Assembly: GCA_034670405.1 (NCBI GenBank) | Contig: JAXDDX010000039.1 | Span: 3,562,001-3,626,000, forward strand | Direction: 5' to 3' | DNA length: 64,000 nt | Origin: Hoplostethus atlanticus | Lineage: Eukaryota > Chordata > Actinopteri > Trachichthyiformes > Trachichthyidae | Part shown: one piece after another, positions 6,734 through 61,301 of the stretch | How the letters are laid out: every line of letters begins with the position of its first letter | Numbering within the stretch: the first letter of the stretch is position 1 | Notes under the pieces: model-generated | What the model saw: only the letters and a program-made list of their open reading frames with translations | Database searches by the model: none | Told to the model about the DNA's origin: nothing | Made by a program: the position numbers and the translations under genes

Positions 6734-9372
6734 TCATTTCCCCTTGAGGTTCACTTTCAGCAGCACTGGCCTGACCCTGATGGTCCTGCTGGTGCAACAG
6801 GTCAGGTACTGCATCCAGTACTTCCTGAACCTTTCATCCCGGAACCCGTAGATCATGGGGCTGAGAAAACGAGGGATGATGTAGACAAGCAGGAAGAAGA
6901 TGTAGCGTATCTCCAAGCTCAGGCGGGGGAAGAGGGAGATGAGAGCAGCCTGAAGGGAAGGAACCACGAAGGCGAGCATGCACAGCAGCAGCTGAAGCAC
7001 AAGGAGAAGAGAGTTTGAAATATTTCAATGGTTATTGCGATAACCATGCTGAACAGTCGCATATGTATCTTGATTTAAATTGAAATATTCACCTGCACCC
7101 AATGAAGCAGCACAGTGTTCCTAGCCTTCTTCACTGAGGCCAGGCCCATGGAGGCGGCCCGTGCTGTCAGCATGATCTTACAGTAGGTGTACAACAGCGT
7201 CAGCGCCACGAAGGAAAAGTAGGTCCCATCGAACACGCAGTTCTTGTAGTAGATGGAGCGGTCGCGGAACAGGAGTGTATGGTCGCAGAAGATGGACGAG
7301 TCAAAGAAGTGCGGGGGCTCCTTGACGACAGTGATGAGGAGGTCGGTGATGGGCGGGGTGGCAGTGAGGATGAGGATGACCCCGATGAGGAGGAGGGTGC
7401 GCCGAGTGGTGCACATCTGGCTGTAATGCAGGGGTAAGCAGATGGAGATGTAGCACTCCACGGCCATGCCGGCCAAGATCAGAGGTGTGGAGCGGACGGT
7501 CAGGACTGCTGTCATTATCTGGAGTAGAGCGCGGTGGTGAGAGGACAGAAATAAGCCAAGCCCTTAATCACGGTTACAGTCTCAAAGGGCTTCACAGTGT
7601 CCACATTATGAAAACAATAAATGACAGCACACAACACCCCCCCAACCTTGGACCGTCGCAAGGGGACAAGGAAAAAGTCCCACAAAACCTTTTAGGAAAA
7701 AATGGAAGAAACCTTGGGAAGAACTACCCAGAGAGGGATCCCCCTACCAGGACAGTCGGGTGTGCAATAGTTGCAGAGGGTGGGCTCACTATACTCCTGT
7801 TTAACATTCGTATATTTGTCTTCTATCCCTGCATTGATTATTGGTTTTTGTGGTGATTATAGTTTTTGGTGATCGCCTCTCTTTTTCATGCTAACTTGTT
7901 CACATTTTTGGCAAAAAGGTGCATTTGTTTACAAAACAAAGCAAAAGCAAAGCAAAACTTCAGATCTGCAGAAAGACATATATGTATCCAGAAGAGGTAA
8001 CGTGAAACTGTCATAATGCAATTTGAATAATGGAATTGGAAGCAATTTGTGTAAGCATGCAAGTTATTGTCAGATAAGATGGTTCCACGATCCACCCTCA
8101 TTCTGTTCATTCAAAGTGAGGCAGTCCTGTTTTGGTTGATGCACTTCCTTTGTGCCATAACTCACACATAGAATAAATATAGAAAGCAACACATAGAATA
8201 AACCAATTTTCTGCAGCCATTATACAATACTAGAAAAAATAATTTGATATGGTTATATTGGAGTAAATATTCCACACGTAGAAGCTTTAATGTCACAATT
8301 TTTATAAGTTTAAAATACACTGTAATTGGGAGTTTGATTCTTCTCCACTCAAAGCAGTCATAGTGCAGGAGCGGAGCAGGTAGAGGTTCAGTGTCTTGTT
8401 CAAGGGCACTTTGCCAGGGATGGACAGATACATACCTTCCAGTTACAGGACAGTCTCTTTAACCACCCTGCTGCATCTGACAGTATAAAACTTGAACTCC
8501 AGACCAGCCATATCTTGCTGAACCCAGTGTGTATGACTCATTAAAAGCTGCTCTACTGTAGACAAGAGCGCTTGCTACAGTAAAGCCTGAAATGTAAAAT
8601 ATAAATGACGTACCAGCAGGCAGCAGACAGAGGTGTGGATCTGCCTGAAGATGTAGCTGACCACGTAGAGAGCTGTTACTAGGCTTAGCTGGAGAGCATC
8701 ATTAATTACCATGTAGATGAACATGATGTAGCGGGGGTCCTCGTAGAAGAAACTAGGGGTGGAGATGGATCAGAGTGGGTTAGGGCTGTGTGTGTTTGTA
8801 TACTAGAGATAGAGAGTGAGAGAGAATCCCCCAAGGCTACTGGCTATACCCTGCTCAACTAATCAGCGTTTGTTTGACATGACCGCAGCTACACGTTGTT
8901 GAGATTTGGGAGATGTGCGCCTCTCCCGTCTACGAGCATCTGCGAGCTACGCTTACCCATAAACCCCTTCTCTGCGTAGCAATGCGTAGATGTTTACGTG
9001 CATCTACACAGAAGTATAACTCGGCCTTAAGGGTTAAGCATGCAGAGATGAGGGTTAAGGTTAGGGGTTGGGGGTTAGGGAATGGATGTAATCAATGGAA
9101 GGTCCTCACTAGTATAGTAATACAAAGTTTGTGTGTTTCAATGTGCACATTTCCCACTGTGACTGTGTATACCTATGTCGTAGAAAGGTGTGGACCATGC
9201 TGCCGTTGATGATGCTGAGGGCCAGCCATACCAGCATGGCCACAATGTTCTTGGTCAGAGCATTGGAGAAGCTATCTTTAGGAATACCCACGGCGTCCCA
9301 TGGGAGTGAAGAGCTGGTATTGTCCATCAGCAGGCCCAAAGGGCCGGAGGAGGTGGAGTTCAGCATCATCAT
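6734..9372 (-). CDS. Odorant receptor 131-2-like, four exons
   Basis: Predicted 340-residue olfactory GPCR. Exons: 9372-9173 (ATGATGATGCTG start; donor CATAG|GTATAC, phase 2), 8752-8614 (acceptor CCCCTAG; donor CTGCTG|GTACG), 7518-7093 (acceptor CTCCAG; donor GTGCAG|GTGAAT) and 6991-6734 (acceptor TGCTTCAG; stop TGA). Introns are 420, 1,095 and 101 bp, and all joins keep frame. Features are an N-terminus with NST and NTS glycosylation sites, TM1 NIVAMLVWLALSIINGS, TM2 YIMFIYMVINDALQLS, a TM3 end of MAVECYISI (Cys in place of the usual Arg of the E/DRY motif), KKARNTVLLH before TM6 and a TM7 end of SPMIYGFRD. The intron positions in TM3 and before TM6 are unusual, since vertebrate OR coding regions are usually a single exon. 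All four exons lack stops, so it looks intact. Likely a chemosensory receptor in olfactory neurons; ligand unknown. Confidence 0.85.
7560..7800. repeat. Repeat-like sequence in OR intron 2
   Basis: Contains motifs common in dispersed fish repeats (aaccttgggaagaac, agagggatccccct, caataaatgacagcac). No second copy is visible in the window, so this is recognition from general experience only. The plus-strand ORF at 7485-7856 across it is not taken as a gene. Confidence 0.35.
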
Positions 9373-12664: not shown

Positions 12665-14583
12665 TTAATTAAAAATTTTAATTAAATCTTTATTGTCTCT
12701 CTCAACGCCTTCGTCCTGGTTGGCCACTTTCTGCGACTTGGCCCTGAACCTGTTGCTCACAAGGTACTTTCTGAGGTACTTCCTGAATTTTTTGTCCCGG
12801 ACACCGTAGATGATTGGGCTGAGAAACCGGGGCAGGATGTAGACGATCAGGTAGTTAGCAAATCGGATTTCTAGGATTCTGCCGGGGAAGATTAGACGGA
12901 GAACAATTTCTACGCTAGGGGAGATATAGGATAGCATGCACATGGCCAGCTGGCCGCCATGGAGTAGGATGGTGTTCCTGGCTCTCTGTGCTGACGTCTT
13001 CTCCGTTGAAAGGGCCCTGGCTGCAAACAAGATCCTCAGGTAGGTGTAGACCAGAGTCAGAAACACGCAGGAGAAATAGATAGCATCAAAGGCTTGTCTT
13101 TTGTATGCCAGGATGGGGTCTTTGAACACATTCTGGCGTAAACAGAATACCGACTCGTGGAAGAAGCTGAGGGACTCGGTCGCCAGCGTCACAAATAGAT
13201 CTGTAATATCTGGCGCCACGCATATAAACCAGATCAACCCTATCAGAATGTATGTCCTCCTTACTGTACAGATCTGGGCGTGGCGTAACGGGTTGCAGAT
13301 GGCGATGTAGCGCTCTATGGCCATGCTGGCTAAGTTGACAGGGGTGTTTCTGGTGGTGAAGACCGCCACGAGGATGAAGAAGCAGCAGAATGAGACGTTG
13401 ATCTTGTAGAAGATGTAGCTGAGGACAAAGAGTATGATGGTGACGGTCAGTTGGATGGCATCGTTGATCACCATGTGGATGAAGAGGATGTAGCGAGTGT
13501 CCTCATAGAATGCCTTGAAAAAAAGGGAGGGGGGGGTGAAAAATGTGGAGCTGGAGTTGGTTGAAGATGTAGCTAAAATTCTTGTGCTGCATTTAGAGGA
13601 AGAGGAAGGGAAAAAAGGGTGTCATTGACCAATGTTGAGGAATAATAATAATAATGTGATACACCCCATAGGGAAATTAAATTTCCGCTCGCTTGTGTTA
13701 GTTGGATGGTGTTGTCGGTCATCAGGTAGATAAACACAGAAACCTTGAGTGAGGAAGAGAGGGAAGGAAGGATAGGGCGGTTGGTCACCACATAGATGCA
13801 GAACATGTAGCAGAGGTAACGTGGAGAGAGGGAGGATGGGGATGAAGAGGAGAGAGAAACGTGTGGACAGACAAACAGCCTTCAGCAGCCTCCCTGCTGA
13901 ATTGTGCTTCAGCAAGACACTGAATCCCTACCAGCTCTAGGGGTACCGTACTATAGCTGACCCTGACCTCTGACCTCCCTGTGGAGATGAATGCCTCCTC
14001 CATTCAGACACCTGACACAACTTGGTCGTGGGTGCTGGACCCTGGCTGATCTGGGACATGGGTGCTGGACCCTGGCCAATCTGGTACACGGATGCTGGAC
14101 CCTGGATAATCTGGCGAGTGGGTGATGGACCCTGGTGGAATTTAGGCTGTTGGCACTGGCCAGGCCAGGCACTACCTAACCTACCAAGCAGATTAGGAAG
14201 CCTCACTATGTCCACCTCTTTGTCCTTTCAGTCCTCAACCTGTTACTCTGTTTTTATGGCTTTTGTTCTGATCATATTCTGTAACCATCACAATTGTCAT
14301 AATTTGATTGATAATTTATAACTGACTGTCATAAATCTGATTGTCTATCAGCTTGACCTAGTTAGGCCTGTAAAGTCCTTTGAGGCTTGTTTGTGATAAA
14401 GGGCTATATAAATAAATAAACTTGACCTGACCTTTAGTTTTTTTTATCTCAATTTGACTTTTTTCTCTACTGATCTTCAGTTTTTAGCACTTCACCTCTG
14501 TTTTATCACTATGCAAATAAATTAAACTACTGCATGTCATTCCTAAGTGAGTACCTGACCACCTGCCTGCCTACGTATGTGTG

Positions 14584-23573: not shown

Positions 23574-24531
23574 CTAAGCCTTGGTCGGACTTGAGGTTTC
23601 TTGAACTGAAAGCACTTTCATTCGGCCAATGTGCAACACCCAAACTAGAAACATCAAGCCATCAACAGGATCTGGATCAGGATCTGAGATCAGTGATTCT
23701 GTGCTGGCCTCAGCTAAGTAGCTCTCAACTATGTTGATGGAGGTCACAGCACCAAATGAGGCAGACTTGGCCTGTGAAAGATCATCTATTTGATACAACT
23801 CTCTATCCACCTCTGAAGCCACATCTGCCTTGAGCCTGTCAAACTCTGATGGACTGAGTAGTGACTTGGGCAAGCTCTTAAACCGGGGGAACCAGGAGGG
23901 TGGCCTTATAGTAATGACCCAAAGGATGATCAAAGACAGTCTGGAAGCATTCATCCAACTGAGACTGCAATGTGGTCAAAGTTTAAGAGCCTCTGGTAGA
24001 CCCTGTACTGCCTCATCCCTCTTTAAGTTTGTCACTGCAGCCTTAAGAGCCTGCACACTAGGGATCACAGAGGACAGATAAGCTACATCCTGGCACACAG
24101 TACATGTTGCCTCCTCAAATGGTTGTAGTATTTTCACCAAGGCCTGCACCAGCTCCCATTGATGGTGTGACAGTACACCTCCCAGATCCAGCTCTGCACT
24201 CATGGCAGTCAGTGCCCCGTCTCTGCTCCAACAGCTGCTGAAGCATGTGGTAGACACATCATGCACCAAAGTATTCATGGGAAGGCCAAGCTCTTCCTGG
24301 ATCTGGGGAAGTTTGTTCACAGCTTTGTTTGATCTATGTACAAACCCAGTTATCTTGCGAGCAATCACTATCACATTGGTCACTCCCTGGCATTCTTTTA
24401 GAGCAGTTGTTACCACTAGGTGCAGGGTGTGAGCCATGCACCTGATGTGTGCACATAGTCACCATCAGCCATTGCCCTGACCATGTTGGAGGGATTATCT
24501 GATACAAAATACTCAACAGAAAATTTCCCTC

Positions 24532-26117
24532 GAGCACCCAAAGTGTGAAATTACTCAGGTATCTACACCTACCTCACCACAATTCATAAATATGACTGAA
24601 TCTCAGGGCCGTTCTAGCAGTGTTCTCGAGAAACTTAATTGTCTACCAGCTTACGACGAGGAATTGATCCAGCCGCCTGCAATTGGCAGGAATCCCTCCC
24701 GACAGCCAACCATGTTGACCCCGCCAGGTCAGAACCCTCAGTGTTTACAGCCTGGGTCCCGTTCTCCTGGGGATGCCCTTGGGTATCTTACCGATCCCCC
24801 TGCGCCACAGGCAATTCCGTATGGTGGAGCAACAGGAAGAGCAGCATCACGGATCACTCAGGTCATGCCTGAAATCTTTGACCCAATGTCTGTATATGGT
24901 GAGCTTGGGGTGCGAGGCCTCAGATCTGGCAATACACGGGTCATGCCACGGAGAAAGCCCCAGGCCGGGAGAGATGATAGCAAAATGGAGGAGTATCTGC
25001 GGAGACCAGAACTCCCCGCCCTGCCAGCTGGCATGGCAGCAAGCGGGTCAGGAACAAGACTCGGTGAGAGGACCCCCTACGCACCAGCTACGGCATCCAT
25101 GCACCCCCAAAGCACAACCCAGAAGCCTCGGATCATAGTCCGCAGTTCTGCGGAACCCAGGAGACCAGGAGAAACAGGAGCCCCAGGAGCCTCTAAAGGT
25201 CCCGGAGATGACGGAGCACGGATGGCAGACATACCAGTTGCCGCCCCCCTCAGGGACTCCGCCATCGGTGACGATCCAGGAGACCCGCTTGGTAATTCTG
25301 TGACACTCATAATGATTGATCTAGCCAGGATCAAGACTGCTGTCTACTCGATGCACCACGACATAACACAGTGGCAGGGAACATGCGGAAACATCTTAGA
25401 GACCATGTCTCAGGAGATCTTACAAATCAAAAGATCACTGGGAAACCAATCAGCGGCTGCTGATCGGGATCAATCGCTGACCATGACAGTGACCTTACCA
25501 AACGCTTCGGTCTACTGACTGGGGGTATAGCGGGAGATCAAGGGCCAACTTATTCAGCTGCAGGGTTCCGGGTTCCGGCAGGAGGGAAGCCGATAAATCC
25601 GCCGATAAATCCGAGAGCCCCCGATCCGTATACTTCCGAGCCATTCAGACCTGGTGGGTTTGCTCAACCAACCGCCTCTCTTGCTGCATATAAATGTGAG
25701 CTCAAAACGACGATGCGACGTGTGAGTTCAATTGACCACGAGGGAACTGCTGCAGTTATAGATAGCTGCACCGATGCCGACTCACTCTCGGTGTTGGCAG
25801 CCGAGATCCAGGGGTTGATCAGTAATCTGGGAGTCACTGCTCAAGCAGCGTCAACAACTGAGGCAATCCACCCACCTCAGAGTGGGGTGAGTGCATCTCC
25901 TCCAACTCCCCTTACACCCCTGAAAATGGATGAAAAACCCGCCCTCGCCCCTGATCAGGGGCCCGTAACTCCCGCACACGGTCGCCATGCAATTGAACCC
26001 GATTTGAGCCACGATTATGCATAAGTTCTTATACCCTACAGAGGCACCTAAGTTTGGTTAAGTGGTCTTGATGTCTGACAATCTTTAGTTTGATTTAAGA
26101 AAAAAAATTTAAAAAAT
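24532..26117 (+). mobile_element. Retro-inserted mRNA-like sequence (candidate endogenous viral element)
   Basis: A 1,586-bp intron-less insert in the hAT transposase, flanked by a perfect 12-bp duplication AAAATTTCCCTC (24520-24531 and 26118-26129). It ends in an A-rich tail, tttaagaaaaaaaatttaaaaaat, so LINE machinery inserted it as a cDNA. It has a 60-base 5' leader, about 1.43 kb of near-continuous coding sequence and a ~93-base 3' leader-like end. The last transcribed motif TTTAAGAAAAAAA resembles the gene-end/polyadenylation signal of mononegaviruses, and the start gagcacccaaag resembles some paramyxovirus gene starts. An ordinary host processed pseudogene remains possible. Confidence 0.55.
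24592..26024 (+). pseudogene. Phosphoprotein-like ORF, one frameshift (candidate mononegavirus P relic)
   Basis: Frame A runs 24592-25518 (308 codons from ATG). It is a hydrophilic, Pro/Gly/Ser/Arg-rich, probably disordered region (residues 1-230) followed by a heptad-like coiled-coil stretch (about 236-284). Frame B, open from 25464 to the stop at 26022-26024, continues with another linker, a compact helical-looking segment (about 25690-25830) and a Pro-rich tail. The break lies between 25464 and 25517. Disordered N-region, central oligomerisation helix and C-terminal helical module is the layout of mononegavirus phosphoproteins. No strong sequence motif proves this, no editing-site-like purine run is seen at the break, and the helical module is not at the very C-terminus as in paramyxoviruses. 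Described as found; not functional as it stands. Confidence 0.45.
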
Positions 26118-27699
26118 AAAATTTCCCTCCAACATCATCTTGCCATTGCTTCACAAGGCCCTGGAGGTGATGCAGAATGTTGGCTGCTGTGTGATCTACA
26201 TTAATAACCTCCATGTTGAAGTGCTCTCACACAACTATGCCCTACTATCCCTTGTGTACTCTGTTTCCGTTCTATCCAGTGGCCAGTGAGAGAAAGATTT
26301 GTTGATTTGAAGATTTGCATTTGTCCGCTTGTCCAGATGTCTGATGTGCAGTGCACAACTTTCCCTTCCATTTTTAAGAGGGATATCTTTGTTTTCACAT
26401 CTTGGTAAAGTTGTGGTACAACCTTACGAGAGAAGTGCCAACGAGATGGTAGTTGATAGTGAGGTACAACCACATTGAGAAGCTTGCGAAAACCTTTATT
26501 CTCCACTATTGAGTAGGGCACCAGGTCAAGACAAATCATTTCTCCCACTGTGTCTGTTATTTGCTTTGCTGTGGGGTGGTTTGGTGGGTAAACCTGTTTT
26601 GCATTAAAAGCAGCTAAGATAGGTGATGTAGAAGAGTGACTTGCAGGGATAGGACATGGCTGTGTTGTTGATGTGGTACTTGTGGGGGGTTGGGGATACC
26701 AGGGTAGGATGCTTGAAATGCAAGTGATTGTACATTGCAGATGTTGACAGATGTTTAACATCTTTGCCTGAATCACACAAAAGGTAGACCTACTTCTACA
26801 CTGCCAACAATATAGGCTAAGTTACAGGGCTAACAGGCGAACGCTAGCCTAATCTCCTCCCAGTCAAACAAGCTCCGCTGTGTCTGCGTCTTCTAAGTTG
26901 AAATAGTGGCACAGCAACTTTTCTAGAATAGCTATAAACAGCGCTCTATTTCTCCAGTGTGATATCTGCAACCGTGTGACACACAGGCTGACTGAGCAGT
27001 AAGCACAGCGCGTAGGTGAACTAGCTAGTAACTACACTGCCAGAGTTAACGTAGGCTAATCTCCTACTCCCGGTCAAACAAACTCTGCTTCACATATTGC
27101 AGGTCTAACAGGAAAACAAAAGACAAGTAACATTATAATAAACTACCTCAGCAAATCAGTTAAGGTAAAAAAAAAACGAATCAAAACAAAATAGTGGCGT
27201 GGAAATGTACTACGTTTTGCCTATATTTTAATCAGGCTGCGCTGCTCCTTTTCAGTCTGTACGTCAGCACAAGCAGGCGGAGCACAAATACCCACCGCGC
27301 TCACAGTTATGAGGAACACCAGCTATTTGACTTTTTTTTTTTCTTCCCGAAAACAAAATATTTGTACAAAATAAGTATTTGTAAAAACCCACTATTTGTG
27401 CTTTGACGAATACCGGATTCGGCTCCACCCCTACAAGACATAACACCAAAACATTTTCAGTGATACAGTTTTGATGCTGTGCAGTTTTGCACTTGTAGCA
27501 TATGCCTGAAAAGTAATTTGTGACGCAATAATTAAAAAAAGAAAAAAAAGAAAGAAATTAACCGATAAACATTTTAATTGACTGCAAGTTGATCTTAACA
27601 CAACGGAAAAAAAGCTTGAAAAGGATCCATGCAGGTAATTGTAGGTAGGTAGTAAATGGCGTAAAAGCTACAAGAAAATGCACCAGACAGCTTACTGTA

Positions 27700-32670: not shown

Positions 32671-34059
32671 ATAAAGCTCTGCCAATTAGGGTTGGGTATC
32701 GTTTGAATTTTATCGATTCCGGTTCCGGTTCTGCTTATCGATTCCGGTTCTTATCGATTCCGAGTTTCGATTCCAATATGGTAAAAAAAAAGAGGTCAAA
32801 TGTTTAGATAACAAAAACATCTTTATTCTTTTAACGAAAGAAAGAAAATGTTCTAATCTCTCATATATTCCACCCAACAACAACACAGTGGAAAGCAGTA
32901 ACAGTTGAACCATTTGTGGATAATAACATTTTGAGCTGCTTGTTGCTTGTAAGATTAACTCAACAGTTCTTGTTAAGAAAGATCACCATATCAGCCTTTT
33001 CCGGTAGTATGCGTGACCTTTCTGGGCAAATAGTGTTTCCAGCAGTGGAGAAAACCCTCTCACTTGGGGTTGAGGAGGCCTGCACGCACAAATACGAAAA
33101 TGCCAAAGGATATGTGGTTCTGTTCCACCACCAGGCAGCAGGGTCATCAGATGTCATTGTTGGTGGCATCTCTTGGTACATCTTCAGCTCTCTGTCAGTC
33201 TGGTGCTGGATGGACGTGGTGCTGTTTGATGATGAGATTTTCATCTTCAGGTCGTCTTCAGCAGCAAAAAGCTCCTCCAGCGGAGACATTATAGCCCTCT
33301 TGCAGGGAGGTGGCTGCTCCTCCTCTTCCTCACTCTCCTGAGTCTCCTCACCTTCCTCATTCTCTCTTTGTCTTTTCTCCTCTGACTGCATTGTTACACC
33401 ATCTTCTCCATGGGCATGCTCTGTTGGCTGCTCGGACTCAGTCAGCTTTCCTACCATCAATTTTTCCTTGACGCGGTCCCAGACAGTGCGGTCCTCCACT
33501 TTGTGCTTGAAACGTGGGTCTAGTACAGTGGCCTCTTCAAGGAAGTGTCTGATGCCATCACTCTGGTACCGCTTGGACAGGTTTCCCCAGACAGCCTGCT
33601 TAAGGTTGCACACAAACACTGTGTCTCCCTCTTCAACAGTGAAGTGCTTCTCCAGCTTCTGAAGAATTGGAAGGACCTGGCCGCATGTGAGGCTCTTTTC
33701 GGATGAAACACAGAGTGTAGATGTGAATAACACTCTCATCAGCTGGATGAACTCCTCTGCCTTTCGGAAATCTTCATCCGTGAGTCGAGCAAGTCGGTCC
33801 CTCTCCATGGGCTTTCTCAGACGCTGATCTAAGCTGGTTGCTTGAATTGCAGGATACTGCTCAATGAATCGTTCCAGCATCATGTAGAGGGAATTCCAAC
33901 GAGTTCTAACATCAAGGATTAGGGAGTGTTGAGGCAGATCTATGACACAAAGAAGGTCACACATGGACTTAATATTGATAATGCATAGGAAATTAGATTA
34001 TTATTATTATTTTTTTTTAACCGTTTTAGTCCTATTCTGTGTGTGTGTGTGTGTGTGTG

Positions 34060-34260: not shown

Positions 34261-34799
34261 GGTGTAGTTAGTTGCATAGTAAGACATGAGATGTATGTTA
34301 TGTTACTTGCATTGTGTTAACAAATTAATTTTTTCCTATAAAATGTACATAATACTTCAGTTTAAATTAGCTGTCCTGTAAAAGGGTCAAATGAAGTGAA
34401 CTGAGGGATGCTTACTTAGGACTTGTTGCTTCTCCCGGAGCACAGGCTTTGCCATGGATGACCGCTTCATCCAGACGACAACATCCCTGATCTTGGCGGT
34501 CCATTTTGCCACTGATGCCAGAGAATAGACACTTTGTGCAGCAAGATTTAGTGTGTGGGCAAAACAGCCTAGCTTTATGAATTGTAGCTTTTTTATTGCC
34601 ACATCCATGTTCCATTGTCAACTGTTACAGCCACTATTTTATCCACTATGCCAAATTCTTGCAAAATGTCACTAATTTCTTCAGCCACCGCTGGTCCTGT
34701 TTGTGATGTATAGACTGCTTTTGTTTTGAGTACTTTCTGTCTCATCTTTCCCTCAATGGCATAGTGTGCTGTCACTGTAAGATAATGAATTTGAATTTC

Positions 34800-37737
34800 A
34801 TGCTGTCACTGTTTCTCATCCAGTCAAGCTCACCATCGCGGTTGTGTACCGCCCACCAGGCCCTGCTGGTGAGTTCCTGGAGGAGCTTGACACACTAGTC
34901 TCCCACTTCCCTGACGATGGCTCTGGACTCATCCTTCTCGGTGACTTCAACATCCAGACTGAGAAGCTTGACCTTCTTCTTTCGTTCCTCGCCTCCTTCG
35001 ACCTAGCCCTCTCCCCATCTCCTCCTACCCACAAGGCTGGCAACCAACTGGACCTAATCTTCACCAGACACTGTTCTACTGCCAACCTCTCCGTCACTCC
35101 TCTTCATCTCTCTGACCACTACTTCATGTCCTACACTCTCTCTCTCTCCTCTCCCCCCTCACATCCTCTCCCTACCCACACGGTTTCTTCTCGTCGCAAT
35201 CTCCGCTCGCTCTCTCCCACTGATCTTTCCTCTTCTGTTCTCTCTGCTCTCCCTGCCCCTGAATCTTTTTCTCTTCTATCCCCTGATACTGCCACTGATC
35301 TTCTTCTCTCTACTCTGTCCTCTTCTCTGGACCATCTCTGTCCCCTCACCTCCAGGCCTGCACGCCAAACTCCACCTGCCCCTTGGTTGTCGGACTCAGT
35401 GCGTACTGAGAGACGGAGCCTGAGAGTGGCTGAGCGCAAATGGAGAAATGGCAACCTCCCGGAGGACCTTCTTACCTTCCAATCTCTCCTTTCCACTTTT
35501 TCCTCCTCTCTATCTGCTGCTAAAGCTGCTTTCTTCTGCACTAAAATTCAAACTTCTGCTTCCAACCCTAAAAAACCCTTTGAAACTTTCTCTTCCCTCC
35601 TCCAACCCCCACCCCCTCCTCCCACCTCCTCCCTCCGCCCTGACGACTTCGCCAACTTCTTTGACAAGAAGGTCAACGATATCCGATCCTCCTTCCCTCA
35701 CCCCCCGGCTGGTGCCCTGCGCACCAACCACACCTATCTGCCTTCCACCCATCCCTCTCTACCACCCTCTCCACCTTTTCCCTCCCCACCTCCCTCCCTA
35801 TCCCATTTTTCTCCCCTCTCCCCAGACGAGGTCCTTCACCTGGTTACATCTAGCCCCCCCACCACATGCTCCCTTGACCCGGTCCCATCCACTCTGCTTC
35901 AGTCTACTGCACCTGAACTCCTTCCCTTCCTGACCCACCTCATCAACACGTCTCTGGTGTCTGGATGCTTTCCCTCTGCTTTCAAGACTGCCAGAGTCAC
36001 CCCCCTTCTGAAGAAACCAACACTTGACCCCTCTGAGGTCAAGAACTACAGACCGGTTTCCCTTCTACCCTTCCTATCAAAAACTCTTGAACGTGCTGTC
36101 TTCAAGCAACTGTCCTTATACCTCCACCAGAACAACCTCTTGGATCCCCACCAGTCTGGGTTCAAAGTGGGTCACTTGACCGAGACTGCCCTCCTGGCAG
36201 TGACAGAGTCGCTCCATGCCGCTAGAGCGAACTCTCTCTCCTCTGTCCTGATACTCCTGGACCTGTCTGCAGCATTTGACACGGTGAACCACCAGATCCT
36301 CCTCTCCACCCTTGAGGGGATGGGTGTCTCAGGCTCTGCACTCTCCATGTTTGCATCCTACCTAACGGATCGCTCCTACCAGGTGACGCTGAGAGGGTCT
36401 GTGTCAGAACCACGCAGGCTCACTACTGGGGTTCTGCAAGGCTCGGTTCTAGGCCCTCTCCTCTTTTCCCTCTACACAACATCTCTTGGTTCTGTTATCC
36501 ATTCACACGACTTTTCCTACCACTGCTATGCAGATGACACCCAGCTGATCCTGTCATTTCCCCCCTCTGACACACAAGTGGAGGCACGCATTGCTGCATG
36601 TCTGGCAGACATCTCGGAGTGGATGTCGATGCACCACCTGAAGCTCAACCTGGACAAAACTGAGCTGATGTTCCTCCCGGGGAAGGGCTGTCCGCACCGA
36701 GACCTGGCCATCACCATTGATAATGCTGTGGTGACGTCAACTCGGACTGCGAGGAATCTGGGTGTGACCCTGGACGACCAACTGTCATTCTCGGCAAACA
36801 TCGCATCAGTGACACGCTCCTGCAGATTCCTCCTCTACAACATCAGGAGGATTCGCCCCTTCCTCACTGACAAGGCAGCGCAGGTGCTCATCCAGGCTCT
36901 TGTCATCTCCCGCCTGGACTACTGCAACTCCCTCCTTGCTGGTGCCCCGGCGTTTGCCATCAGACCTCTGGAGCTTGTTCAGAAAGCTGCAGTTCTGGTG
37001 TTCAACCGCCCCAAGTTCTCCCATACAACTACCCTTCTCCGTTCTCTACACTGGCTCCCTGTAGCAGCTCGCATCCAGTTCAAGACCCTGGTGCTAGCCT
37101 ATAGGGCAGTGAAAGGAACAGCTCCTTCTTACCTCCAGGCTATGGTCAAGCCTTACACCCCCGCCCGACCACTTCGCTCTGCTGCCTCGAGGCGACTGGT
37201 TGCCCCGTCGCTCAGAGGGCCCTGCGGCCGATCTACACGGTCACGGCTCTTCTCTATCCTGGCCCCGCAGTGGTGGAATGAACTCCCCACTGATGTCAGG
37301 ACAGCAGAGTCGCTGCCCATCTTTCGCCGCAGGCTGAAAACCCACCTCTTCAGGAAACACTACCCTGACCCTTCCCCTTAGCCATGCCTATTTGTCGTCA
37401 ATTATGTGTCTGAGCTCTTGTTTATTGGCTCTTGTTCATTTGATACACTTATTTGTCTTAGCTCTTGCTTATTTGGTTCACTTATTTGTCTTAGCTCTTG
37501 TTTATTTGATTATCTTATTTGTCTCATTTGTTTAAGATATAGTAGGTTACTAACTTATTGCACTCTTACCTTAACACTAGTTATGCTCTTAGTTGCTTGT
37601 TTAGGAAGGAAATGCACTTACGATTTCTGGTGACTAGTAGTTTTTTTGCCTACCTATGTTGAATGCACTTATTGTAAGTCGCTTTGGATAAAAGCGTCTG
37701 CTAAATGACTGTAATGTAATGTAATGTAATGTAATGA
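34800..37737 (+). mobile_element. L2-clade LINE, 5'-truncated, long open frame
   Basis: Contains the C-terminal part of the endonuclease, the full reverse transcriptase and a 0.35-kb 3' UTR. The 3' UTR ends in a hairpin (37680-37696: stem CGCTTT/AAAGCG, loop GGATA) and TGTAATG repeats. This hairpin-plus-TGTAA tail is the 3' signature described for UnaL2-type L2 elements. The element is inserted in the ZBED hAT gene. Other copies of its tail are at 19793-20025 and 52803-52858. Confidence 0.9.
34844..37381 (+). CDS. L2 ORF2: endonuclease (partial) and reverse transcriptase
   Basis: Uninterrupted 845-codon frame; the first codon is GTG because the 5' part is missing, so this is not a true start. 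Endonuclease motifs LGDFNIQ (residues 32-38) and LSDHYF (about 90) are followed by a Ser/Pro-rich linker. RT then shows KNYRPVSLLPFLSKTLER, LLDLSAAFDTVN (motif A, Asp near 473), GVLQGSVLGPLLFSLY (motif B, with Leu where Pro is usual) and YADDTQL (562-565, catalytic). The C-terminal end has SALHWLPV-like and FSILAPQWWNELP motifs. It ends at a TAG before the 3' UTR. Intact RT motifs with no stop suggest a young insertion, but without its 5' half and promoter the copy is probably immobile. Confidence 0.88.
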   Translation: MYRPPGPAGEFLEELDTLVSHFPDDGSGLILLGDFNIQTEKLDLLLSFLASFDLALSPSPPTHKAGNQLDLIFTRHCSTANLSVTPLHLSDHYFMSYTLSLSSPPSHPLPTHTVSSRRNLRSLSPTDLSSSVLSALPAPESFSLLSPDTATDLLLSTLSSSLDHLCPLTSRPARQTPPAPWLSDSVRTERRSLRVAERKWRNGNLPEDLLTFQSLLSTFSSSLSAAKAAFFCTKIQTSASNPKKPFETFSSLLQPPPPPPTSSLRPDDFANFFDKKVNDIRSSFPHPPAGALRTNHTYLPSTHPSLPPSPPFPSPPPSLSHFSPLSPDEVLHLVTSSPPTTCSLDPVPSTLLQSTAPELLPFLTHLINTSLVSGCFPSAFKTARVTPLLKKPTLDPSEVKNYRPVSLLPFLSKTLERAVFKQLSLYLHQNNLLDPHQSGFKVGHLTETALLAVTESLHAARANSLSSVLILLDLSAAFDTVNHQILLSTLEGMGVSGSALSMFASYLTDRSYQVTLRGSVSEPRRLTTGVLQGSVLGPLLFSLYTTSLGSVIHSHDFSYHCYADDTQLILSFPPSDTQVEARIAACLADISEWMSMHHLKLNLDKTELMFLPGKGCPHRDLAITIDNAVVTSTRTARNLGVTLDDQLSFSANIASVTRSCRFLLYNIRRIRPFLTDKAAQVLIQALVISRLDYCNSLLAGAPAFAIRPLELVQKAAVLVFNRPKFSHTTTLLRSLHWLPVAARIQFKTLVLAYRAVKGTAPSYLQAMVKPYTPARPLRSAASRRLVAPSLRGPCGRSTRSRLFSILAPQWWNELPTDVRTAESLPIFRRRLKTHLFRKHYPDPSP

Positions 37738-38675
37738 TCTTGGGAAATGCTTGTCCAGCCGTCGCTGGTTAAGGCAACTTTGCTAACATCACTGAGCTCA
37801 GATATGTTAGACTTTTCCACCTTGTACCATGCTGGAATCAGTTCATTACTCAAACTATCTCTGGAGGGAGGAGTGTACTTTGAATTTAGGGCCTTGGTCA
37901 TCTCCCTGCAAATAAAAATTAAACATAACAGCAACTGTTACTGGTTGCACAAGTACCCTAACTTACCATCATCAAATGTTTTTTTTTTCCAATTTATTTA
38001 TTTTAAACCTTGCCTACCTAAATGACGGAGATTCGACAACTGAGAACGGGTGTAGCCCTTTCACCACAAATGCCGTTACCGCTCTGTGACACTCGTCAGT
38101 TTTCTCCTGGGTCATTTTCCCCGTCATTGCCAAAGAGAACGGTGTCTCACGGCTTGCTGTCCCTGGCTCTAGTGGAGGCATGACTGGAGGTGCTTGCGAG
38201 GTGCTCGCGCTGGCTGACACACTCGCACTCGGAGACCGCAAGACATCAAACACGGTACATTTTTTCAAATCAATGCCGTGCTGCCTCAAATGTTTGGTGA
38301 GATTTGACGTGCAACCTGCCTTGCAGCTAATACATTTACCACATTTACTGCACTTAGCCTTGTCGTCGCTTTCTTTTACATAATGAAGCCACACTTGTGA
38401 CCGTTTACCGCGGTCCATCTTTCACACTGCTGACATTAGCATGAACACGTTGCGTTGATGCGTCACGTAGACAGGTCCTGGTAGATTAAAAAAAAATGGC
38501 AGGTAGCCGCCACGTCCTTGCAGACATATAGCCTTTGTTTGCAATAATAAAGATTTATATCTCTTTTAGGAACCGATAAGCAGAACCGAAATTCAACTTT
38601 TTCTTTCGGGTACCCGGTACTCGGCATTCGGTTCTAATTTGGAACCGAGTTTCGGTTCCCAACCCTACTGCCAAT

Positions 38676-43238: not shown

Positions 43239-44792
43239 TCACTGCGTTTTCACAGCAGGCCCAGTGCTTGACTTGGTGACATTTTGTGGATGATTTCTTA
43301 TGCTCACTTTACACAAGAGGTACCTTTTCAGATATGTCCTGAAGGTCTTGTCTCGTAGGCCGTAGACAATGGGACTAACAAACCGTGGCAAGATCTGAAT
43401 AATGACATAGCAGGTGAAGCGTGTTGCCAGGTGCTGCTTGGGGAAGAAGTACAGGATGCCTTTCTCTAACATGGGCTGCACATAAGTGAGCATACATAAC
43501 AGCAGCTGAAAACCATGGAGGAGGATAGTGTTCCTGGCTTTCTTAACATCTGTGGTAGCCTCCTTGGCAGCAAACAGAATCCTGAAGTAAGTGTAGAAGA
43601 GGGTGAGCCAAACCAAGACAAGAAAAACTATATGGGATGCATCCCTCTTCTTAAGGCTGTAGGTGCTTCTGAACACGTAATCCCTGGCACAGAACACTCT
43701 GGAATGGAAGAACTGCAGAGGTTCTGTGGCCAGGAGGATGAACACATCTGGTAGGATAGAGACCGCACTTGTCACCCAGATCAAACCAATCAGTACATAG
43801 GTTTTCTTGATAGTACAGATCTGGCCATGGCGGAGGGGGATGCAGATTGCAATGTAGCACTCAACTGCCATACCAGCCAAATTTAGTGGAGTGTTGAAGG
43901 AAGTGAGGACAGTAATAATCAGCAGGAAAATGCAGAATGACACATTGATGGTGTACAGGGCATAGCTGATGACGTGGAGAAAGCCTGAGAGGGCCAGCTG
44001 CATTATGTCATTCATCACCAGGTGGATGAACAGAATGTAACGAGGGTTCACATTGAAGATCTGGAGGATAAGGTTGGTGAAGACAATAGAATCAAAAGGA
44101 ATATAACTGAATGAACCTACAATTTGAAGAAATGCTTTTTGAATCTGGTACCCAAATCAAGTAAATTTATGAGTCAACGGTTAGGATCCCTTGTACTACT
44201 CAACTATTAGACTAACTTCCCTATGACAGAATTTGCAGTCCCTCCCTATTGTAGTTTGGGCCATATAGAGCTCAAGTCCTTCATATGTCCATATCTTGAG
44301 TTTGAGTAATTCAGCTTTCTATTCTCACTATTTCATAGCAGTCCTTTACTTCAAATACTCCTTGTGTCCTTCATAACCCCTGCTTATCTGATATATTGAA
44401 ATGGGGAACAGGTTGTCCCAGACCACAGTCTAGGAAACGTGTATTAAAAGAAATACATATATTTCATTCCCTCATTTGAAAATGAATGTGTTTAAATTCT
44501 TCATCATAAAGTATCAAGAGAATGTAAAGTGGTTTCAAATTTGTTGTGTTAGAATATCCCTGTGGTATTATTTCATAGTCCCCTGTATATCTCACTTTTC
44601 TTTCTTAAAGAGAAAGATAAATAGCAGATTTCTGACCTGGTGTTTTCTGAAGGTGTGGACCAGGGTACCATTGATGTAGTTAATGGAGATGCAGAGAGCC
44701 ACGACAATCACATTCTTGGTTACAGCTGTGGTGAAAGTGTCCCGGTAATTCTCAAGTGAGGTCACATTACCACCAACAGATGAAAAATTCAT
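43239..44792 (-). CDS. Odorant receptor 131-2-like, two exons
   Basis: Predicted 325-residue OR. Exon 1 is 44792-44637 (MNFSSVGGN..., 52 codons, donor CACCAG|GTCAGA) and exon 2 is 44060-43239 (acceptor ATCCTCCAG, IFNVNPRYIL...). The intron is 576 bp, phase 0. Features: N-glycosylation sites in the first 15 residues, TM1 NVIVVALCISINYING, TM2 YILFIHLVMNDIMQL, conserved Cys near residue 95, TM3 end MAVECYIAI (Cys120 in place of the DRY Arg), KKARNTILLHGFQ before TM6, TM7 SPIVYGLRD, and a hydrophilic tail. Closest in the window to the 60256-61301 gene. No break seen; likely a working chemoreceptor. Its upstream flank is duplicated downstream of the gene. Confidence 0.9.
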
Positions 44793-57995: not shown

Positions 57996-59134
57996 TTTCC
58001 ATATGGCCTTACATTATAGTATTTTTCTGGGGCTTTTATTTTGAAGCTGGGCTTTGTTGTTTGAGAAAGGAAGCCTCTGTCCTAGTGGCCTTGCTTAAAT
58101 AAACATACAGTTAACTGCATATATTTGTTTGTGGAATTTATCTTCTTCAGTCACTCTGCATGCAGTTTGCAGTAACAAAATGGTTTGAACCTGCAAATTG
58201 CCGCTTGTGGCTATATTTTATATTGTATTTATAATTTGTTTTATGTCACCTGTTTCTTTAATACTGTTTTCATTTTGTGGGGTTTTTTGTTCTAAAATAA
58301 AGAAAATCTCAAAGACATAAAGCTATGCAGTTTCTGCGTGAGTGTATGAACACAATGATTGGTGGTGGAATTGGCTGCGATGCAAGGGGCACCAGCTAAA
58401 ATCTTGCCTAGGGCACTAAATTGGTCAGGGCTGGCTCTGGCACTAGTCCTCTGTTAGTACTTAGATCTAACAAGTTGCAACTCAATTTAGGCACTGGCCC
58501 AACATAATAATAAAGTTACACAATGTACAAAACAAAAAGAGCCACATCTGCATCACTCCTCAGTCCCTTGTTTGAGTGCTTTTCACTCCACTTTTGGCTC
58601 GAAGACGCTTTACTTTTGAGTGATGTTGTTGCACTAGATTATGAACATTATTTTATTTTTATTGGTATGTGCATTGGAATAATGCTACCTTATTTGCATA
58701 GGTATTTTATTTTGAAGGACAGGGTGAACATGTCATTGTTTGAGGGTGATTTCCTGGTTAAAAAACATTTCTAAAAGACATTGCGCAATATTGATGTCTT
58801 AAATTGTTTTTCAGAATATATGCCTAAACAATTGTAGTTCACTCATAACTTTTCTAAGCAAGTATTTTGCGTTCAGGAGGATTAAGTATAACAGACTATT
58901 CCATTGTGGGCAGAAACATTTCGCACAACTAACATTCGTCCTCTTGGCTACTTGCATTCAATGCAGAAGATGCAGTAGAGCACCTTGAGCAAGAGTGACT
59001 GTGAGCCTGTATCAACATCATTGTTTTCTACTATTCCAATGCAGACCATTGTGAATAAAACCCATTCATCGAACCAGTCATGGCAGTGTCTGTTGTGATT
59101 GCCAGGTCTGTGAAGCTGTGAATACAGCACTAAA
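57996..59134. other. Intergenic, nothing firm
   Basis: AT-rich; the ORF at 58523-58774 has no recognisable domain. Confidence 0.45.
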
Positions 59135-59456
59135 GTACACTGCACGAATGTGATGAAGCCTCTTATCAAACAAACTCTTCTGGCTCACCCCGATTTCTCT
59201 AAGCCGTTCTTGCTCTCGGTCGATGCATCCAGTAAGGGGTTGGGGGCCATGTTATCTCAAGTGCAAGCGGATCATGCAACCGCTAGACCAATTGCATTCG
59301 CTAGTAAATTTCTAAATCACGCTCAGTGTAAGTATCCTGCTCACAGACTTGAGGTTGTGGCAATGAAGTGGGCTATCCATGACAAATTCAGCCATTGGCT
59401 TCGAGGGCATAGGTTTACTGTGTGGGCCGACAATAATCCACTTAAATGTCTTCAAT
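59135..59456 (+). pseudogene. Ty3/Gypsy RNase H fragment
   Basis: Reads LAHPDFSKPFLLSVDASSKG (catalytic Asp), then LGAMLSQ, RPIAFASKFLNHAQCKYPAH, EVVAMKWAI and FTVWADNNPLKCL, i.e. a near-complete Gypsy RNase H domain in one frame with both neighbours lost. Confidence 0.85.
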
Positions 59457-60255
59457 AAATAACACAACACAGAATGAAACCCGTTACACTGCCACTGGGC
59501 GATTAATCTGTTTCTTTTTCCTTAGATTTTCCACTGATGGATTTAGATTTTCTTTAGGTCGTTTCATTGTCTCATTGTCTCTCATTTCTACTGTCTGTTG
59601 TCTGTTCTGTACTACCCAGTTCTTCTATGTATTCCAAACAAACCGCTGTTGCTGCTTCTGGAAATGTACAATACATTGCTGTGTGATGCATGACATTTTA
59701 TAATTTGTCCTCCTATAAGGATTCTGACTGATTGACTCCAAATGTTTATTTTCTATAAGGTTTTCTCAGTGGCTTCCAGTAGCCTTATATCCATTCCTAA
59801 TAGTTATGACCCTCACTGCCCTACAATGGCGTACATCAGCAATTTTTTACATCAAGACTAGGGTGTGAATTTCAAATTAACATACACTATACCCATAAAT
59901 GGTAGTAAATAATATAATAACCACTAGACTAGTACTAGCCTACCAGAAATACTTTTGCCAGGACAGCAGATAAACATGAATTATTTTGCAAAACATTTCT
60001 CTCAATTTCACAATGAAAAGTGTTTCAGTGTGATGTTTTGAAACATCCCATCCTCACTACATCATTGAAAACAATGATGTTGACACCTAGGATTTTTATG
60101 GTGCATGGCCAAGAGTAGGCAGCCTATGAATTACTGTAAATTTAGAAGAACTCGGTATCGGTACTGGGATTGGCCAATCTACTTAACAAAGTACTCACTT
60201 TGTTAAAAATTGAGTACTAAATTGGTATCGGTGCAGCACAATTTAAGACTGTTTT
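59457..60255. other. Downstream flank of last OR gene, nothing firm
   Basis: No gene or clear repeat end; acttggtatcggtac-type block near 60150-60240 only. Confidence 0.45.
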
Positions 60256-61301
60256 CTATGGATTCATGCTTGTGCTCACAGAACACAGCAAGTGCCTTTT
60301 CAAGTACTTTCTGAATGTCTGGTCTCGTAGCCCGTAGACAATAGGACTGACAAACCTTGGAAGGATTTGGATGATGATATAACAAGCAAAGAGTGAGTTT
60401 GAAGAATTTTTAGGGAACCATTCCAACAGAGCATTTTTTAACACAGGGCCTATATAGGTTAGCATGCACAACAGTAGCTGAAAGCCATGAAGCAGGATAG
60501 TATTCCTGGCCTTCTTAGCATCTCCATCAGCTGCTTTAGCAACAAAGAGGATCTTGAAGTAAATATAGAGGTGAGTGAGCCAAACTATAACTAGTAAAAT
60601 TATGTAGGACACATTCGTCTTCCTTATGATTAAGGGGTTTCGGAATATCCTAGTCCTCTCACAGAATATTCTAGAATAGAAGAATTCTCGAGGTTCTGTA
60701 GCTAACATTACAGACAGATCTGGTAGTATGGACATGGCAATCGTGGCCCAGATGAAACCAATCAGAATGTATGTTCTCTTGACTGTACAGAGCTCAGCGT
60801 AGCTGAGTGGAAAACAAATAGCGATATAGCACTCTACTGCCATGCCAGCTAAATTTAATGGATTGTTCTCACTGGTAAAGCAAGCAAGTACGATGAGGAG
60901 GCAACATAAGGAGACATTAATTTTGTAAAAAATATAGCTGAAGATGAACAGGGTGATCGTCACAGTAAGCTGGATCATATCGTTGATCACCAGGTGGATG
61001 AACAGTATATAACGAGGATTCACGTAAAATATCTGGAGAGGAAAAGAAAGGAGAGGAATTTATCACAGAGAAAGGAGCATATCCATTTTTGTTTCTCCTT
61101 TCATACATCTTCACCTCTTACTTGCACATAATACAAAAGGCTTCTGACCTGGTGTTTGTTAAAGGTGTGGATCAGGGTACCATTGATGTAGTTGATGATG
61201 ATGCCAAGAGCCAAAACAATCACATTCTTGGTCACAGCTGTGCTGAAATTGTCCCGATAACTCAGAGTAATCGACACATTATCATGAGATGAAAAATTCA
61301 T
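60256..61301 (-). CDS. Odorant receptor 131-2-like, two exons
   Basis: Predicted 309-residue OR. Exon 1 is 61301-61149 (MNFSSHDNVS..., 51 codons, donor CACCAG|GTCAGA) and exon 2 is 61032-60256 (acceptor CCTCTCCAG, IFYVNPRYIL..., stop TAG). The intron is only 116 bp, phase 0. Features: N-glycosylation sites NFS and NVS, TM1 NVIVLALGIIINYING, TM2 YILFIHLVINDMIQL, TM3 end MAVECYIAI (Cys instead of Arg), KKARNTILLHGFQ before TM6, TM7 SPIVYGLRD, C-tail short. Very similar to the 43239-44792 gene but without its duplicated flank. No break seen; likely working. Confidence 0.9.

What the first reader, a model, noticed from the sequence alone, without database searches (positions are those of the whole stretch)
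24532..26117. mRNA-like insert in a hAT transposase: possible endogenous mononegavirus phosphoprotein relic
A 1,586-bp intron-less sequence sits between perfect 12-bp duplications (AAAATTTCCCTC) with an A-rich 3' end, so it is a LINE-mediated retrocopy of an mRNA. The protein has a long disordered Pro/Gly/Ser-rich N-region, a ~50-residue coiled-coil segment and a helical C-terminal module, the layout of mononegavirus P proteins. The mRNA ends in TTTAAGAAAAAAA, like a mononegavirus gene-end signal, and starts with gagcacccaaag. Layout, length and signals agree, but no diagnostic motif was found.
Basis: partly seen in the sequence, partly recalled or inferred. Interest (0 to 1): 0.85.

Follow-up and report, generated by a model that had tools for sequence, protein, structure and literature searches.

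The report
Possible fossil virus P gene, fish
A fish genome carries what looks like a recent DNA copy of a messenger RNA for which no parent gene was found, which ends like messengers of some relatives of mumps virus and encodes a protein laid out like a viral polymerase helper, so it is probably the relic of a past infection by an unknown virus, although no sequence relative proves it.

Summary
A 1,586-bp insert (24532-26117) lies between perfect 12-bp duplications and has an A-rich 3' end: a LINE-type retrocopy of a compact mRNA. It has a 60-nt leader, a first ATG opening 308 codons, one frame break, a second frame of 186 codons, and 69 nt before TTTAAG plus A-tract, with no AATAAA or ATTAAA. 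A host source is disfavoured: in the fish's own 632.8-Mb genome each frame matches only itself, and ORF1 has no relative at E<=1 in a 5.8-billion-protein collection that gives a neighbouring gene 993 hits. The 3' end equals, over 12 bases, the P-gene end of a pararubulavirus. The protein has a Pro/Gly-rich N-region, a 42-residue coiled coil (12 of 12 core positions hydrophobic; 0 of 5,000 shuffles) and a module modelled, at low confidence, as three helices. Against: no sequence or fold homology, no V zinc finger, no edit site above chance, no matching gene start, no paramyxovirus N match (weak). Verdict: probably a retrocopied mononegavirus phosphoprotein mRNA, paramyxovirus-like; family unproven.

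The parts
24520..24531 (.). 5' target-site duplication AAAATTTCCCTC; starts with AAAA after CAG, as for a LINE-type endonuclease nick (that preference is recalled)
   Evidence: exact copy at 26118-26129; the script found these two places only in the window
24532..26117 (+). retrocopied mRNA, 1,586 bp
   Evidence: lies between the duplications; GC 0.531, CpG o/e 0.63 against GC 0.39/0.40 and CpG o/e 0.26/0.36 in the left (4.5 kb) and right (3.9 kb) flanks
24532..24591 (+). 5' leader, 60 nt, no upstream ATG; begins GAGCACCCAAAG
   Evidence: only ATG in 24532-24594 is at 24592
24592..25518 (+). ORF1: 308 codons plus TGA; long Pro/Gly-rich N-region then coiled coil
24770..25138 (+). overlapping +1-frame ORF (122 aa from its ATG; 139 codons stop to stop), C-protein-like only in position and frame
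   Evidence: 92 of 2,000 synonymous-codon shuffles have as long a +1 frame; no family match
25288..25413 (+). coiled-coil segment, residues 233-274 of ORF1
   Evidence: 12 of 12 a/d hydrophobic, 0 of 5,000 local shuffles
25464..25518 (+). stretch open in both frames, inside which the reading frame changes once
   Evidence: ORF1 ends at 25518, ORF2 opens at 25464
25464..26024 (+). ORF2: 186 codons plus TAA; Pro/Gly-rich linker, helical module, Pro/Ala-rich tail
25680..25829 (+). helical module; three helices in the single-sequence model (25680-25727, 25737-25763, 25776-25829)
   Evidence: AlphaFold2 of 25635-25856, mean pLDDT 51.6, pTM 0.28; low confidence. The model of all ORF2 had only two helices and two strands at pLDDT 46
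26025..26093 (+). 3' untranslated region, 69 nt, no AATAAA or ATTAAA
26094..26117 (+). gene-end-like TTTAAG followed by interrupted A-tract
26118..26129 (.). 3' target-site duplication AAAATTTCCCTC
23574..24519 (-). left flank: broken open frames of the interrupted older element (hAT-like by inspection)
   Evidence: CpG o/e 0.10 in 23577-24458; no Pfam match above cut-off
26130..26821 (-). right flank: the other part of the interrupted element
   Evidence: CpG o/e 0.18 in 26201-26821; junction frame of 70 aa after joining the flanks

Best explanation
[quoted passage not shown] In the virus the protein would have worked as the polymerase co-factor: disordered N-region holding free nucleoprotein, coiled coil forming the oligomer, C-terminal helices tethering the polymerase to the nucleocapsid. 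Shown here: the retrocopy anatomy, the compact mRNA without the two main poly(A) signals, the viral-type 3' end, the coiled coil, and that no parent gene was found. Inferred: viral origin, P identity, paramyxovirus-like lineage, the helper functions. In the fish today it is a broken pseudogene; function and expression were not tested.
For: Duplication, A-rich end and restored junction frame. Both frames match only themselves in the own 632.8-Mb genome: ORF2 1 match (E<=0.001), ORF1 1 match (E<=10). No protein at E<=1 for ORF1 among 3,803 candidates in a collection that gives a neighbouring fish gene 993 hits at E<=1e-10. No premature stop in the two in-frame pieces analysed (1,404 bases), which bounds neutral divergence since insertion to about 0.08 (P=0.05), and CpG o/e 0.64 inside against 0.10-0.18 in the flanking frames: a young insert in an old element, so a host parent should still be recognisable. 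TTTAAG plus A-tract equals the printed P-gene stop TTTAAGAAAAAA of Achimota pararubulavirus 3 and is in a printed hPIV2 junction; the six bases before the A-tract have a chance of 1.4e-4 to 4e-4 at one fixed place (for a motif chosen after seeing it). A perch rhabdovirus has a different end signal (3'-AURC[U]7, passage). Coiled coil 0 of 5,000 shuffles; Pro/Gly-rich sequence on both sides. Three-helix prediction. Paramyxovirus elements are known in teleosts.
Against: No Pfam match above a cut-off, and no NCBIfam (a bacterial and archaeal library), significant PDB, protein-collection or viral-contig match. The structure models are low confidence and their fold matches are not significant. The 5' end does not match the gene starts printed for AchPV3 (GGGCCCGA) or APMV-4. 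No V zinc-finger frame; AAAGG at 25195 is the only match to the printed P-mode edit pattern, and about two such matches are expected from the base composition (my arithmetic). The modelled helices are followed by a 64-residue Pro/Ala-rich tail, whereas the paramyxovirus X domain is C-terminal. No Paramyxo_ncap match in this genome (its control rang nowhere either, so weak). The polymerase (L) and insert-DNA searches of the genome did not complete.
Confidence: 0.62

Rival explanations
1. Retrocopy of the P-like (VP35) or another mRNA of a different mononegavirus family, for example a fish filovirus, not of a paramyxovirus.
For: Fish filovirus VP35 has no significant similarity to the other VP35 (PMC11398700 passages), so a lack of profile matches says nothing. 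Some filovirus P-equivalents also have coiled-coil oligomerization domains (PMC7913705 passages). Filoviruses leave elements in fish genomes. A TTAAG plus A-tract end is also filovirus-like as far as I recall (one search did not print the signal).
Against: The exact 12-base 3' end is printed for pararubulavirus genes. The ebolavirus VP35 C-terminus is a helical subdomain packed on a sheet subdomain (PMC3293882 section 20), while the module here is modelled as helices only (low confidence).
Confidence: 0.18
2. Processed pseudogene of a fast-evolving, lineage-specific fish gene whose parent is lost, unassembled or too rare to be in databases.
For: Retrocopies of host mRNAs are common, and some host mRNAs lack the two main poly(A) signals (both recalled); CpG o/e 0.64 equals that of one of three neighbouring odorant receptor frames.
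Against: No parent exon found in the own genome, no protein at E<=1 for ORF1 (control), short 69-nt 3' UTR without AATAAA/ATTAAA, and low divergence since insertion, so a parent should be near-identical.
Confidence: 0.15
3. A retroelement of its own (for example a LINE ORF1-type unit with disordered region and coiled coil).
For: LINE ORF1 proteins can have coiled coils (recalled); the window holds a LINE with reverse transcriptase at 34781-37378.
Against: Single copy by protein search in 632.8 Mb (the DNA search did not complete); no Pfam domain and no terminal repeats inside the insert beyond the target duplications.
Confidence: 0.05

Closest known systems
Paramyxovirus endogenous elements in teleosts (17 RdRp, 2 nucleoprotein; PMC11521997, passages read)
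   Same: Teleost host; proposed mononegavirus source; some with large open frames.
   Different: Those were found by similarity to L and N; here the proposed gene is P and no sequence similarity was found. 'phosphoprotein' has 0 occurrences in that main text.
P gene of Achimota pararubulavirus 3 and paramyxovirus P in general (PMC7692193, one table passage; PMC8708338, passages)
   Same: Identical 12-base gene end TTTAAGAAAAAA; disordered, coiled-coil and helical parts in the same order.
   Different: Gene start GGGCCCGA not matched; no edit site above chance or V frame; no detectable identity; a tail follows the helical module.
Filovirus VP35-like elements in vertebrates (PMC11398700, passages read)
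   Same: Copied P-equivalent gene of a mononegavirus in vertebrate genomes.
   Different: Those are recognised by similarity to VP35; this insert has none, and its end signal is shown here only for paramyxoviruses.

Membership tests
Non-retroviral endogenous viral element made by LINE activity | target-site duplication, A-rich end, no sign of introns, single gene | tested here: met
Non-retroviral endogenous viral element made by LINE activity | recognisable similarity to a virus | tested here: not met
   P proteins share no similarity beyond subfamily or family (PMC7913705 passages), so the failure is weak evidence
Paramyxovirus phosphoprotein | coiled-coil oligomerization domain between disordered regions | tested here: met
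   heptad test with shuffles and composition of the regions; disorder judged by composition only, oligomerization not tested
Paramyxovirus phosphoprotein | C-terminal three-helix X domain | tested here: inconclusive
   three helices modelled but pLDDT 51.6, followed by a 64-residue tail; the model of all ORF2 differs; fold searches without significant match
Paramyxovirus phosphoprotein | soyuz1 motif in the first 40 residues | tested here: inconclusive
   five proline-free 11-mers with a tiny residue at position 4; the residues allowed at positions 1, 8 and 11 were not in the text read
Paramyxovirus phosphoprotein | gene-end signal | tested here: met
   12 of 12 bases as printed for the AchPV3 P gene; six of the 12 are As that any tailed mRNA would have
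Paramyxovirus phosphoprotein | gene-start signal | tested here: not met
   GAGCACCCAAAG against pararubulavirus GGGCCCGA and APMV-4; resemblance to other genera is recalled only, not tested
Paramyxovirus phosphoprotein | edit site and V zinc-finger frame | tested here: not met
   AAAGG 25195 at chance level, no Cys-rich alternative frame; some paramyxoviruses have partly or completely lost V (PMC8204654 passages)
Paramyxovirus phosphoprotein | profile or sequence similarity | tested here: inconclusive
   no Pfam match above a cut-off for ORF1, ORF2 or four pieces (best Octopine_DH, E 0.095, on the coiled coil); the ORF2 protein search could not see proteins above about 324 aa, the ORF1 search above about 539 aa
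Host processed pseudogene | parent gene in the same genome | tested here: not met
   one match each, itself
Host processed pseudogene | AATAAA or ATTAAA upstream of the A-tract | tested here: not met
   0 in the insert; five rarer variants occur, the last at 25689, over 400 bases upstream
Filovirus VP35 | coiled coil plus C-terminal helix/sheet domain | tested here: inconclusive
   coiled coil met; C-terminal fold undecided

The most novel reading that the evidence does not exclude
The insert is the phosphoprotein gene of a mononegavirus lineage not yet known, which infected this fish's ancestors recently in evolutionary time, and it would be the first endogenous P gene recognised by the anatomy of its mRNA instead of by similarity (first as far as the searches go).
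Probability: 0.4. Interest if true: 0.65.

Novelty: new member of a known kind. Interest (0 to 1): 0.5.

Why it matters
Surveys of endogenous mononegavirus elements depend on similarity, and those read here report mostly nucleoprotein and L genes (passages); P proteins diverge too fast to be seen that way. If this reading is right, P relics can be recognised from mRNA anatomy (duplication, compact UTRs, no poly(A) signal, gene-end signal, coiled coil), which opens a hidden part of the fossil record and points to an unknown virus of fishes.

Full report
What is there. The window comes from a teleost: the open frame at 12668-13621 is an odorant receptor whose named matches among the 120 rows listed are fishes (one row also bears a ferret label), for example 92% identity to Diretmus and to Centroberyx over 86-87% of the frame. 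It is G000:C39:3562001-3626000 of a 632.8-Mb assembly. At 24532-26117 an insert of 1,586 bp lies between two perfect 12-bp copies of AAAATTTCCCTC. Joining the flanks at one copy gives a 70-aa open frame across the junction on the - strand, so the insert broke an older open frame. The flanks look like a hAT element by inspection, but Pfam does not name them; other frames in the window do carry hAT and BED domains.

An mRNA copy. The insert has one ATG in its first 63 bases, at 24592, and it opens 308 codons. A second frame, 186 codons, takes over between 25464 and 25518 and stops at 26022-26024. Then come 69 nt, TTTAAG and an interrupted A-tract. AATAAA and ATTAAA are absent from the whole insert. 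None of 2,000 dinucleotide shuffles has a frame of 328 codons stop to stop (longest 325), while 108 have one of 186, so ORF2 is not remarkable by length alone. A-rich tail, duplication and the AAAA start of the duplication fit LINE-type target-primed insertion (endonuclease preference recalled).

A young copy for which no parent was found. There is no premature stop in the two in-frame pieces analysed (1,404 bases); under neutral decay this bounds divergence since insertion to about 0.08 at P=0.05. CpG observed/expected is 0.64 in the coding stretch and 0.10 and 0.18 in the two flanking frames. A host parent gene should therefore still be close in sequence. Six-frame searches of the own genome found only the insert itself, for ORF2 (E<=0.001) and for ORF1 (E<=10). 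In the protein collection ORF1 had 3,803 word-sharing candidates and none at E<=1, ORF2 363 and none (that search could not see proteins above about 324 aa). The same collection gave the neighbouring receptor 993 hits at E<=1e-10. This speaks strongly, though not absolutely, against a processed host pseudogene.

Viral marks. Achimota pararubulavirus 3 prints TTTAAGAAAAAA as the stop of its P, HN and L genes (one table passage of PMC7692193), and an hPIV2 vector paper prints a junction that contains it (passages of PMC8596570). The insert ends with these 12 bases, their only occurrence in the window. Because A is expected there, the informative part is TTTAAG, with a chance of 1.4e-4 to 4e-4 at one fixed place; the motif was chosen after it had been seen, so this is not a clean P value. 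The 5' end does not match the gene starts printed for AchPV3 or APMV-4 (passages of PMC2577636). A perch rhabdovirus has another end signal (passage of PMC8632185). The filovirus signal was sought in PMC9601197 and not found in its text.

The protein. Residues 1-232 of ORF1 are 14% Pro and 11% Gly. Residues 233-274 form a heptad pattern with 12 of 12 a/d positions hydrophobic and 5 of 30 elsewhere. ORF2 has a Pro/Gly-rich linker, a helical module and a Pro/Ala-rich tail. Mononegavirus P proteins share this order of parts without sharing sequence beyond subfamily or family (passages of PMC7913705; passages of PMC8708338). The soyuz1 motif could not be decided from what was read of PMC3293882 (outline, passages and sections 11, 14, 19, 20; test). 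There is no V zinc-finger frame, and the only match to the printed P-mode edit pattern is at chance level.

Verdict. It works like, and is most simply read as, a retrocopied phosphoprotein mRNA of a mononegavirus; the end signal points to a paramyxovirus-like source. It is not filed as a member of Paramyxoviridae, because gene start and V/edit features were tested and not met, and no similarity was found. In print, teleost paramyxovirus elements were reported for L and N (passages of PMC11521997), and the other survey lists the attachment-protein (HN) gene among paramyxovirus-derived elements (passages of PMC11089739). No endogenous paramyxovirus P turned up in the searches (12 of 22 papers listed; 2 of 3 listed); apart from the passages named here, I saw only listings.

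Noticed in passing
464-907, 7075-7563, 12665-13621, 43239-44156, 60256-61059 (all -): A row of fish odorant-receptor-like open frames; only 12668-13621 was tested by search (131-2-like), the others are by inspection.
   Followed up: partly
34781-37381 (+): 866-codon open frame with endonuclease and reverse transcriptase domains: a LINE with an open frame, possibly of the kind that made the insertion.
   Followed up: partly
32960-33997 (-) and 38014-38421 (-): hAT dimerisation domain and BED zinc finger: separate hAT material in the same window.
   Followed up: partly
25589-25612: Perfect tandem duplication of 12 bases (GCCGATAAATCC) inside ORF2; it keeps the frame.
   Followed up: no
24719-25138 (+): 139-codon overlapping +1 frame in the N-terminal part of ORF1; slightly longer than expected (92 of 2,000 shuffles reach it).
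   Followed up: partly
59114-59458 (+): RNase H-like piece of a reverse transcriptase, LTR-type by recall.
   Followed up: no
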